DNA of 64,000 bases from an uncultured Prevotellaceae bacterium (GTDB taxonomy: Bacteria; Bacteroidota; Bacteroidia; Bacteroidales; Bacteroidaceae): contig ONCK01000011.1 in the NCBI GenBank assembly GCA_900316315.1, forward strand, positions 1-64,000. The letters are read 5' to 3'. The translations under genes and the position numbers were made by a program. Under the pieces are notes generated by a model that worked only from the letters and a program-made list of their open reading frames with translations, did no database searches and was not told the origin of the DNA. Of the stretch, positions 24,441-27,601 are shown one piece after another; positions within the stretch are counted from its first letter, which is position 1, and the number at the start of each line of letters is the position of its first letter.

Positions 24441-26258
24441 ATGCAAGCAGTGATTTTGGCCGCCGGCATGGGTAAGCGCCTCGGCGAGTATACGAGGGAC
24501 AATACCAAATGCATGGTACGTGTCAATGGCGTGAGGCTGATAGACCGGGTGCTGACCCAGCTTAGTCGTCTTAAGCTTGACCGTGTCATCATCGTCGTGG
24601 GGTACAAGGGGGAGGCTCTCAAGGCCTGTATAGGTCATCGGTACGACAACAAGCTTCATATCGAGTTTGTCAACAATCCAATCTACGACAAGACCAACAA
24701 TATATACTCCCTCTCTCTGGTTAAGGATTGTCTCTGTGAAGATGACACTTTGCTGCTGGAAAGTGATCTGATATTCGAGGACTCTTTGCTCCGGCAGATT
24801 CTGGCTAATCCCTATCCTAATTTGGCGCTGGTCGCCAAGTGGGAGACATGGATGGACGGTACTGTTGTCAGGCTTGATCAGGATCGGAATATCATCAACT
24901 TCATTTCAAAGAAGGCCTTCAATTACGCGGATGCGGATCTCTACTACAAGACAGTTAACATCTACAAGTTTAGTAAAGAATTTAGCCGGCATAAATATGT
25001 GCCCTTCCTCACGGCCTATTGTGAGGCAGTAGGCAACAATGAGTATTATGAGCAAGTGCTGCGCATTATCACCTTTTTGGACAAGAGTGATATCAAGGCG
25101 CTTCCTATTGCAGACGAAAAATGGTATGAGATAGACGATGTGGCTGATCTTGACTGCGCTTCGTCTATCTTTAAGGACAGTGTGGGGCAAGTGCAGGACT
25201 ATGCCCGTCGTGCTGGAGGTTATTGGCGCTTTCCTAGTATACTTGATTTCAGTTTGCCGACCCATCCTTACTTCCCTCCGGAGCGCATGATGGAGGAAAT
25301 GAGAGCCAACTACAATGTACTCCTGCGCAACTACCCGAGCCGGGTACATGTCAACTGCGTTTTGGGTGGAAAGTGCTTCGTCATCAGGAGCCAATATGTG
25401 GTCGTAGGCTGCGGTCTCCCTCAGATGATTGACTCTTTGCTTCGACATATCGAGGGAAAGGTGGGGATCATAGTGCCTAACATGGCATCCTATGGGAAGC
25501 AGATTCCGGAGAATCGTCTCATACCCTATCAGGCCAAAGGAAAGGACTTCAAATATGGCGTAGACGAACTGATGGCATTTTACAAAGACAAGGGCATCAG
25601 TCTCTTGATTCTGTCTAGTCCTGACCAAGTGTCTGGACAGACTATTGCCCTGCAAGATGTGCTTCGCCTCTATGAGTGGTGTGAGAACCGTCATATCCGT
25701 TTGGTCGTTGACGAGACGCTGGTAGACCTTGCCGTGGACTTGACGACAGACACTCTGCTTCGCGACAGGCTGTTGGAAAATCGAAAGATGCTCATCGTCT
25801 TGCGTGATATCGCAGAGTCCCATGGCGTGCCCGGACTCCGACTGGCTATGATGGCCACCTCGGACGAGGATATTGTGGCCCTTATGCGCCAAGATGCAGA
25901 GATGTGGCCGATCAACAGTTTCGCGGAATTTTATATGCAGATATTCAATAAGTACGATTTTCTCTACAGTCGTGCCCGTGAGCAATTTCAGAAGACACGG
26001 GAGCATCTTATTGACCTTCTGTCGACGGTCAGCTGGCTCAGAGTCATCCCTGGTGAGGCCAATTTCCTACTTTGTGAAGTCAAGGATCTCTATACTTCGG
26101 CAGGCGTTGTCAGTCAGTTGCTTCAGGAGTACAGCATCCTCGTACGGGACTGTTCCTCCGACCTGTCAGGACAAGGGCGCCAGTACATACGGATTGCAGT
26201 ACGCAGCTTGGCGGATGATGAGCGACTGATCAGTGCTCTCCTGCATTTCCATCCTTAG
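24441..26258 (+). CDS. LicC/PntC-like cytidylyltransferase fused to an aminotransferase-fold domain lacking the PLP lysine
   Basis: A 605-residue two-domain protein. Residues 1-240 are a nucleotidyltransferase of the LicC class: LAAGMGKRLGEYTRDNTKCMV is the NTP-binding loop and ESDLIFE the metal-binding acidic motif. Residues 265-605 have the fold-type I aminotransferase layout of the HisC-like domains found fused in PntC-type enzymes. However, where this family has SK(S/A)xGVPGLRLG, the sequence is RDIAESHGVPGLRLA, so the Schiff-base Lys is Glu459 (codon GAG 25815-25817). The N-P-N-N-P-T-G loop is also lost (SSPDQVSGQ, 392-400), while DET (424-426) and the GLRL Arg remain. The first domain probably makes a CDP-activated head group for the LicD protein encoded next; the second is probably structural or regulatory. 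The start gives the NTP loop at once. Confidence 0.85.
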   Translation: MQAVILAAGMGKRLGEYTRDNTKCMVRVNGVRLIDRVLTQLSRLKLDRVIIVVGYKGEALKACIGHRYDNKLHIEFVNNPIYDKTNNIYSLSLVKDCLCEDDTLLLESDLIFEDSLLRQILANPYPNLALVAKWETWMDGTVVRLDQDRNIINFISKKAFNYADADLYYKTVNIYKFSKEFSRHKYVPFLTAYCEAVGNNEYYEQVLRIITFLDKSDIKALPIADEKWYEIDDVADLDCASSIFKDSVGQVQDYARRAGGYWRFPSILDFSLPTHPYFPPERMMEEMRANYNVLLRNYPSRVHVNCVLGGKCFVIRSQYVVVGCGLPQMIDSLLRHIEGKVGIIVPNMASYGKQIPENRLIPYQAKGKDFKYGVDELMAFYKDKGISLLILSSPDQVSGQTIALQDVLRLYEWCENRHIRLVVDETLVDLAVDLTTDTLLRDRLLENRKMLIVLRDIAESHGVPGLRLAMMATSDEDIVALMRQDAEMWPINSFAEFYMQIFNKYDFLYSRAREQFQKTREHLIDLLSTVSWLRVIPGEANFLLCEVKDLYTSAGVVSQLLQEYSILVRDCSSDLSGQGRQYIRIAVRSLADDERLISALLHFHP

Positions 26259-26297: not shown

Positions 26298-27092
26298 ATG
26301 CGTCAGATTACAGATAAAGACGAGTTGAGGACCCTACAAAAGTCCATCCTCGATGAGATTCATAAATATTGTATAAGCCACGGAATCACGTACTATTTGG
26401 CCAGCGGCAGTCTGCTTGGTGCCGTACGTCATCAGGGGTATATCCCGTGGGACGACGATATAGATCTCTATATGCCCCGCGCCGACTATGAGCGCTTCGT
26501 CAGGGAATATCATGATGACAGTGGGCGATACGAGTTACTCGAGCCGCGGCGTACCAAGCACTATGTGTACACTTTTGCCAAGCTTAGCGATACGCGTACC
26601 ATCATGCACGAGGATGCCTACGAGGGCTATCCCATCGGGGTTAACGTAGATATCTTCCCACTTGACTATGTGTCAGACAATATGATGGTGCGTCGTCTCG
26701 TCTTTACTCTCAAACGTCAGGTGTTTCGTATATGTATCGACAAGATTGTTCCGCTGCTGCGTGACCATCGTCCATCAAATATCCTTAAGCGCTTGGTATG
26801 CAAGATGTTGCCGGTGAGCCGCCTCATGCTCATTCGGCTTATGCGTAGGCTTGAGTGGCATAAGGGCAAGTCCAGTACGGTGGTCAATATGACTGAGATG
26901 GGGCCCGGCATTGAGGCTTGCTTCTCAGCGCATGCCCTCGACGGGACGGTTGATCTGCCCTTTGAAGGCAAGATGTACAAGACCATGGCCGGCTACAAAG
27001 AGTACCTCACCTATACCTACGGAGACTATATGAAGCTCCCGCCTGTGGACCAAAGACAGACCCATAAGTTTGAGGCTTACTGGAAGGATTAG
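26298..27092 (+). CDS. LicD-family head-group transferase
   Basis: A 264-residue protein with the LicD/nucleotidyltransferase-fold signature: YYLASGSLLGAVRHQGYIPWDDDID followed by LYMPRADYERF. The DDDID acidic cluster binds metal. Family members move phosphocholine, phosphoethanolamine or aminoethylphosphonate from a CDP-activated donor onto cell-surface sugars. It begins 39 bases after the cytidylyltransferase fusion, which would supply the activated donor, so the two form a small surface-decoration operon. I see no PEP mutase, choline kinase or choline importer nearby, so the head group is unknown. Confidence 0.9.
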   Translation: MRQITDKDELRTLQKSILDEIHKYCISHGITYYLASGSLLGAVRHQGYIPWDDDIDLYMPRADYERFVREYHDDSGRYELLEPRRTKHYVYTFAKLSDTRTIMHEDAYEGYPIGVNVDIFPLDYVSDNMMVRRLVFTLKRQVFRICIDKIVPLLRDHRPSNILKRLVCKMLPVSRLMLIRLMRRLEWHKGKSSTVVNMTEMGPGIEACFSAHALDGTVDLPFEGKMYKTMAGYKEYLTYTYGDYMKLPPVDQRQTHKFEAYWKD

Positions 27093-27286: not shown

Positions 27287-27601
27287 TTAGAGCAGTGCGG
27301 CAGCCTTCTCCTCTACCTGCGTACCGGGTACGGCTCCGATAATCTTGTCTACGATTTCCGTCCCCTTGAGGAAGTAGATAGCGGGGATATTGCGAATGCC
27401 GAACTTGCTGGCGAGGTCGTCATTGTCATCGACATTGCACTGTCCGACGATGATTTGGCCATCATACTTCTGGGCCAGCGCTTCTATCACGGGCGCCATG
27501 CGGCGGCATGGGCCACACCACTCGGCGTTGAAATCAATTACCATGGGTTTCCCCTGCGCTGCATAATCAGCGAAATTCTGATCTGTAAAGTCTATTACCA
27601 T
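27287..27601 (-). CDS. Thioredoxin
   Basis: A 104-residue thioredoxin with the full fold in one domain and the active site WCGPC at residues 28-32. The buried Asp (VIDFNAEWCGPC), the cis-Pro loop (RNIPAIYF, usually IPT) and a C-terminal G-VPG-Q helix are present. No signal peptide, so cytoplasmic; it reduces disulfides with electrons from thioredoxin reductase. It lies downstream of dnaE (160 bases) on the same strand, an arrangement I recall in other Bacteroidales. Confidence 0.95.
   Translation of the reverse strand: MVIDFTDQNFADYAAQGKPMVIDFNAEWCGPCRRMAPVIEALAQKYDGQIIVGQCNVDDNDDLASKFGIRNIPAIYFLKGTEIVDKIIGAVPGTQVEEKAAALL

What the first reader, a model, noticed from the sequence alone, without database searches (positions are those of the whole stretch)
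24441..26258. LicC-like cytidylyltransferase fused to a transaminase domain without its PLP lysine
Seen: in the C-terminal aminotransferase fold the strongly conserved SK-x-x-GVPGLRLG motif reads RDIAESHGVPGLRLA. Glu459 (codon GAG, one base from AAG) stands where the Schiff-base Lys should be, and the NPNNPTG loop reads SSPDQVSGQ. The rest of the fold, DET and the GLRL Arg, remains. Known: PntC-type fusions of a cytidylyltransferase with an active transaminase make CMP-aminoethylphosphonate. Inference: here the transaminase half is a pseudoenzyme, perhaps an allosteric or scaffolding part that binds a head-group ligand and hands it to the LicD protein encoded 39 bases on. No PEP mutase or choline uptake gene is in the window, so the head group is open.
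Basis: partly seen in the sequence, partly recalled or inferred. Interest (0 to 1): 0.75.

Follow-up and report, generated by a model that had tools for sequence, protein, structure and literature searches.

The report
Surface-sugar enzyme with dead half
A two-part bacterial enzyme that probably prepares a small group for attachment to surface sugars has kept its first half almost unchanged, while its second half has lost the residues needed to hold its vitamin B6 cofactor, a loss not seen in any of the relatives read here.

Summary
The 605-aa protein joins a LicC-like nucleotidyltransferase half to a fold-type I PLP half closest to CobD and HisC, not to PntC's class V transaminase. Glu459 stands at the Schiff-base lysine column. 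The other 93 family genes matching the PLP half, in a 399-genome sample, and 80 from another collection (overlapping sets) all have Lys. This is no point error: of columns invariant in 88 relatives, the PLP half lost 28 of 77, the first half 1 of 68. Only the PLP half evolved fast, with no stop. The Glu is private to this lineage: a young pseudoenzyme domain, not a conserved design.

Surroundings tell more. Elsewhere the gene travels with one of two unrelated opine-type dehydrogenases (86 of 94 genomes with it, 19 of 305 without), sometimes in one polypeptide, often near LicD. All ten same-genus genomes with an intact gene have exactly one of them; the window's genome has neither, though five other genomes with an intact gene also lack both. 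I infer that a module building an N-carboxyalkylated amino-alcohol phosphate head group was lost, leaving a nucleotidyltransferase that feeds the neighbouring LicD. Selection on the dead half beyond its open frame is not shown.

The parts
24441..25175 (+). Nucleotidyltransferase half (aa 1-245), LicC/PntC-like, probably CTP-using
   Evidence: PF12804 6.9e-12; 1jyk 2.3e-9 and 6pd1 1.7e-8; keeps 67 of 68 invariant columns
25224..26255 (+). Degenerate fold-type I PLP half (aa 262-605), CobD/HisC-like
   Evidence: PF00155 1.1e-17; 6oux 5.1e-24, 1lc5 1.7e-20; Foldseek TMt 0.78-0.85 to 6oux and CobD; keeps 49 of 77 invariant columns (aa 246-605)
25815..25817 (+). Codon GAG, Glu459, at the Schiff-base Lys position
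25803..25847 (+). Cofactor motif RDIAESHGVPGLRLA (KSISKSYGVPGLRLG in most relatives); R467 kept
25617..25637 (+). SPDQVSG in place of NPDNP(S/T)G
25710..25730 (+). DETLVDL in place of DESFVDF; D424 and E425 kept
25407..25424 (+). GCGLPQ in place of GNGAAE
25476..25502 (+). PNMASYGKQ in place of PTFEEYPNR; Lys353 is new (0 of 88 relatives)
26298..27092 (+). LicD-family phosphotransferase gene, 39 bases downstream, same strand
   Evidence: PF04991 4.2e-42; 64% to the LicD next to the nearest homologue
27287..27601 (-). Gene of 104 aa, thioredoxin-like; its homologue also lies beside the intact gene in two same-genus genomes (positional orthology)
   Evidence: cluster 19; named by eye from the WCGPC motif of the homologues

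Best explanation
The gene encodes a working nucleotidyltransferase (probably CTP-using) that still carries a dead PLP-enzyme half. In its relatives both halves would work together: the CobD-like half makes an amino-alcohol phosphate from a phospho-amino acid (phosphoserine to phosphoethanolamine is my best guess), the first half activates it as a CDP derivative, an opine-type dehydrogenase N-carboxyalkylates the amine, and LicD moves the head group onto a surface glycan. In this lineage the PLP half lost its cofactor lysine and much of the surrounding pocket, and the genome has neither of the two dehydrogenases. The protein therefore feeds the neighbouring LicD with a simpler head group whose phosphate precursor comes from elsewhere. 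The dead half is kept as an unbroken, probably folded, structural extension. Shown: loss of the residues, loss restricted to one half, open frame, absence of both dehydrogenase families, LicD next door. Inferred: every substrate and reaction, their order, and the structural role.
For: Lys at the column in 80 of 80, 10 of 10 and 85 of 85 other sequences, overlapping sets. First half keeps 67 of 68 invariant columns, PLP half 49 of 77; leave-one-out maximum loss among 88 relatives 2 and 1. Trees: first-half distance to L085 0.550 for the window against 0.544 for its sister L004; PLP half 2.061 against 0.817; PLP-half terminal branch 1.474, median of others 0.139, highest other 0.605. No stop where neutral estimates expect 6.6 or 9.2. 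AF2 model mean pLDDT 89.7, Foldseek to CobD and 6oux. Gene with a dehydrogenase: 86 of 94 genomes against 19 of 305 without the gene; 7 single polypeptides of fusion plus dehydrogenase and 6 of dehydrogenase plus LicD. Own genome: no PF02317, no PF02423, nothing over the CobD cut-off.
Against: Formerly invariant columns changed (28 of 74 in aa 262-605) about as often as I estimate by hand for the variable ones since the split, and the hydrophobic core is only slightly better kept than under neutral change (9 non-hydrophobic of 103 against 14.8 expected, P 0.07; the variant gave 10 of 19 against 11.2 expected, no excess). So the dead half may be decaying with only its frame protected. Seven other genomes have the gene with Lys (two of them split into two frames) but neither dehydrogenase, so the two need not go together. 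The concerted loss is a single event. Lys353 is new and in a pocket loop. No substrate has been tested.
Confidence: 0.6

Rival explanations
1. The PLP half is simply decaying: a non-functional tail on its way to deletion, tolerated because a stop or frameshift would harm the first half or the translation of licD 39 bases on.
For: Old invariant columns are no slower than others; core test P 0.07 and no excess; the Glu form was found in one lineage only.
Against: No stop where 6.6-9.2 are expected neutrally; one gap column against L004 in the PLP half.
Confidence: 0.26
2. The half has a new, selected role: it binds a ligand or a partner (allosteric, scaffold, or LicD docking), as LCB1 does for LCB2 in serine palmitoyltransferase.
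For: Frame kept; D424, E425, R467 and R584 kept; precedent that LCB1 lacks the PLP lysine (PMC3794620, passages).
Against: No close paralogue to pair with was found in the genome: the hits are one HisC-like gene among his genes (by eye) and other aminotransferase-like frames, none over the CobD cut-off. With one sequence no conservation pattern can be tested.
Confidence: 0.1
3. Catalysis persists without the lysine, with PLP or PMP held non-covalently or through another lysine such as Lys353 (recalled precedent: the His-bearing dehydratases ColD and E1).
For: D424 and R467 kept; Lys353 is new in a pocket loop. In Tde1415 (PntC-AEPT) PLP was seen non-covalently bound in the crystal and the enzyme was still active (PMC6697681, passages).
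Against: Both serines beside the lysine, Asn393, Asn396 and Phe348 are lost as well.
Confidence: 0.03
4. Sequencing or assembly error.
For: Only one sequence of this form was found.
Against: Dozens of substitutions confined to one half with an intact frame.
Confidence: 0.01

Closest known systems
PntC-AEPT of Treponema denticola (Tde1415; 6pd1, 6pd2)
   Same: N-terminal LicC-like cytidylyltransferase fused to a fold-type I PLP enzyme; top Foldseek hit by E-value
   Different: Its C half is named aminotransferase class V and has the features for classical catalysis (PMC6697681, passages); here it is class I/II, CobD/HisC-like, and without the lysine. Full-length superposition is poor (rmsd about 22, TM 0.38), so the domains match singly.
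LicC, CTP:phosphocholine cytidylyltransferase (1jyk)
   Same: First half, E 2.3e-9; LicD encoded next door
   Different: Fused; substrate unknown; no choline kinase over the Pfam cut-off in this genome; licB was not searched for
CobD L-threonine-O-3-phosphate decarboxylase (1lc5) and SMUL_1544 (6oux)
   Same: Fold and best sequence matches of the PLP half
   Different: Both have Lys where the window has Glu. The intact relative L004 scores 188.9 bits on TIGR01140, under its cut-off of 290.55
LCB1 subunit of serine palmitoyltransferase
   Same: PLP-enzyme homologue without the PLP lysine (PMC3794620, passages)
   Different: LCB1 pairs with the active LCB2; no such partner was found here

Membership tests
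PntC-AEPT fusion | LicC-like N-terminal nucleotidyltransferase | tested here: met
PntC-AEPT fusion | Class V AEP transaminase C half | tested here: not met
   PF00155 class I/II; sequence hits CobD and HisC; 6pd1 matches only aa 2-207 by sequence
LicC/PntC cytidylyltransferase | CTP and head-group specificity | not testable with these tools
   needs an enzyme assay
Active fold-type I PLP enzyme (CobD/HisC) | Schiff-base lysine | tested here: not met
   Glu459 against Lys in the relatives read
Active fold-type I PLP enzyme (CobD/HisC) | Fold | tested here: met
   AF2 pLDDT 89.7, TMt up to 0.85 to CobD; a prediction, made with 48 relatives in its alignment
CobD (TIGR01140) | Score over the curated cut-off | tested here: not met
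   113.6 bits against 290.55
LicD family (downstream gene) | PF04991 over cut-off | tested here: met
   145.2 bits against 22.6
LCB1-type pseudoenzyme subunit | Active paralogous partner | tested here: inconclusive
   none found in own genome, but the other aminotransferase-like frames were not examined one by one

The most novel reading that the evidence does not exclude
Bacteroidales widely make a CDP-activated 'opine' head group for surface glycans: nucleotidyltransferase and phospho-amino-acid decarboxylase in one protein, an octopine-type or an unrelated mu-crystallin-type dehydrogenase that N-carboxyalkylates the amine, and LicD as transferase. The window shows a lineage that dropped the amine-making and opine-making steps together and kept the rest, turning half of a bifunctional enzyme into a structural pseudoenzyme.
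Probability: 0.35. Interest if true: 0.72.

Novelty: new variant of a known kind. Interest (0 to 1): 0.52.

Why it matters
It is a clean natural case of one half of a bifunctional enzyme going dead while the other stays strictly conserved. The comparison also exposes a widespread head-group gene set in Bacteroidales in which two unrelated opine-type dehydrogenases replace each other. I found no paper on it: searches listed none by title or start of abstract (one search listed 12 of 272), and (octopine with LicD) found none; the library holds open-licence papers only. Zwitterionic glycan decorations of gut bacteria matter for host immunity (general knowledge), and this makes a specific chemical structure testable.

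Tried and rejected
Point mutation or sequencing error: rejected, 28 invariant columns of the same half are lost. Conserved pseudoenzyme family: rejected, no Glu in any other relative read. Domain swap or horizontal transfer of the PLP half: not supported, L004 is the sister in both half trees (its support value was not printed). Phosphonate head group through a PntC-AEPT route: not supported for this locus; the PEP mutase cluster on contig 21 has phosphonopyruvate decarboxylase and an iron alcohol dehydrogenase next to it, not an AEP transaminase. Choline kinase: only a match under the cut-off in the own genome (26 bits). dS was saturated (NG86 gave no value, YN00 failed), so no dN/dS. A first motif search missed 16 of 86 loci, for a reason I did not trace; an alignment read all 86. 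A first OCD comparison picked the wrong frame and was redone. Paper searches gave nothing used; one search listed PMC6461909, later read as passages.

The Fisher value (2.5e-58) ignores the relatedness of the genomes and should not be read as a probability. The genome lists were typed from the tables; four PF02423 genomes under the cut-off were left out. 'With the gene' there means a match to the PLP half at E <= 1e-20; 89 of these 94 lie in frames of 603 aa or more, five (G173, G248, G258, G349, G350) in frames of 299-447 aa.

Full report
What is there. The frame 24441-26258 (+) codes for 605 aa. Pfam gives NTP_transf_3 on residues 3-134 and Aminotran_1_2 on 319-600. By sequence the first half matches LicC (1jyk) and the PntC half of 6pd1; the second half matches 6oux (SMUL_1544, titled a decarboxylase), Salmonella CobD and HisC. 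The AlphaFold2 model (mean pLDDT 89.7) matches 6oux and CobD with TM-scores of 0.78 to 0.85 on the target length, and PntC-AEPT only domain by domain. LicD follows after 39 bases.

The lysine. In the alignment with CobD (1lc5) Glu459 stands opposite the lysine that counts out to 216 in that chain (that Lys216 is CobD's Schiff-base lysine is recalled). In the 399-genome family sample 94 genomes match the PLP half: besides the window's own, 85 were read and the remaining 8, so 93 of 93 others have Lys. The 80 overlap with these.

More than one residue. Over 88 distinct relatives, 68 columns of residues 1-245 are invariant and the window keeps 67; 77 columns of 246-605 are invariant and it keeps 49. 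Lost ones include N275, N324, E328, T347, F348, E350, R354, N393, N396, P397, S426, F427, K455, S456, S458, K459, G469, N490 and K574. Treated the same way, no relative loses more than 2 in the first half or 1 in the second. D424, E425, R467 and R584 are kept.

Timing and rate. L004 (60% identity; the same sequence as L084 of a same-genus genome) is the sister in both half trees. For the first half the window and L004 lie equally far from L085 (0.550, 0.544); for the second half 2.061 against 0.817. The loss therefore came after the split from L004 and touched one half only. dN between window and L004 is 0.165 and 0.496 for the two halves, against 0.184 and 0.293 for L004 and L085.

Is the dead half selected? 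With about 177 excess nonsynonymous changes, 9.2 stops are expected neutrally and none is seen. A simulation tuned to the loss at old invariant columns expects 6.6 stops; none of 500 runs had zero. So the frame is protected. The fold is less clearly so: 9 of 103 core columns are no longer hydrophobic, where neutrality expects 14.8 (P 0.07), and of 19 core columns with a residue new to the family 10 stayed hydrophobic where 11.2 were expected. The frame alone could be kept for the sake of the first half or of licD.

What the intact relatives do. In 75 of 86 loci with a recovered gene (L009 and L021 dropped, window not counted, eight loci with short flanks) an octopine-type dehydrogenase (PF02317) or an ornithine-cyclodeaminase/mu-crystallin-type protein (PF02423) is fused to it or lies within four genes; LicD in 57 of 86 (the two families named from one member each). 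Seven loci have the fusion and the dehydrogenase in one protein of 943-953 aa, and six have dehydrogenase and LicD in one protein. Genome-wide, 86 of 94 family genomes with the gene carry one of the two dehydrogenases (59 PF02317 only, 25 PF02423 only, 2 both), against 19 of 305 without. Two unrelated families that both hold reducers of imines between amines and 2-oxo acids (general knowledge) replacing each other suggests an N-carboxyalkylated amine as product.

The window's genome. It is 99% complete and has no PF02317, no PF02423 and nothing over the CobD cut-off. All ten genus genomes with an intact gene have exactly one dehydrogenase: four PF02317 (G002, G008, G015, G016), six PF02423 (G001, G004, G006, G007, G010, G012). 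The PF02423 proteins of these six are 49-63% identical to the one beside the gene in L007; in G001, G004, G006 and G010 they lie on another contig than the gene. Of the eight genus genomes without the gene, two have a PF02423 protein (G013, G014). Against strict coupling: G133, G146, G251, G289 and G320 have an intact gene and neither dehydrogenase, and G173 and G248 carry the gene in two frames without one. Next to some of these lie other NAD-binding-like proteins (by eye).

Locus. A thioredoxin-like gene beside the locus in the window also adjoins the intact gene in G001 and G010, and a nitroreductase-like gene lies nearby in all three (Pfam in the window; by eye in the others), which supports positional orthology.

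Verdict. The PntC comparison and the idea of a conserved design are not supported. The dead half is private as far as read, young, and best read as a retained shell after loss of a head-group module; plain decay is the main rival. The chemistry of that module is inferred. Papers: PMC6697681, PMC10434233, PMC3794620, PMC6461909 and PMC8092220 were seen as passages only. That SMUL_1544 acts on serine phosphate is recalled; the calls show only its title as a decarboxylase and, from a title in a reference list, its role in norcobamide synthesis.

Noticed in passing
own genome contig C21, L112:5061-9327 (-): A 666-aa protein with NTP_transf_3, a second cytidylyltransferase-like domain and PEP mutase, then phosphonopyruvate decarboxylase and an iron alcohol dehydrogenase (best NCBIfam model PsrA, under its cut-off): looks like CMP-hydroxyethylphosphonate synthesis.
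   Followed up: partly
L011, L017, L019, L020, L025, L029, L033: Nucleotidyltransferase, PLP half and octopine-type dehydrogenase in one protein of 943-953 aa (Pfam scan of L019).
   Followed up: yes
L023, L054, L057, L062, L068, L075: Dehydrogenase and LicD in one protein of about 600 aa.
   Followed up: yes
G005:C19, G018:C46, G017:C41, G004:C124, G016:C17: Unfused version in the same genus: LicD, a nucleotidyltransferase and an aminotransferase on one stretch (coordinates).
   Followed up: no
L232 (G248) and L233 (G173): The gene lies in two overlapping frames: a natural break or split. G258 and G350 also have short frames there.
   Followed up: no
L227, L228 (G133, G146): Genomes with an intact gene but neither dehydrogenase have an unidentified 331-aa NAD-binding-like gene next to it, perhaps a third alternative (by eye).
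   Followed up: no
L022:4412-5941, L026: A LicD domain in one frame with an IspD/TarI-like cytidylyltransferase just upstream of the gene (LicD by phmmer; IspD/TarI by eye).
   Followed up: no
window 25497-25499: Lys353 occurs in none of 88 relatives and lies in the loop PNMASYGKQ beside the old cofactor pocket.
   Followed up: partly
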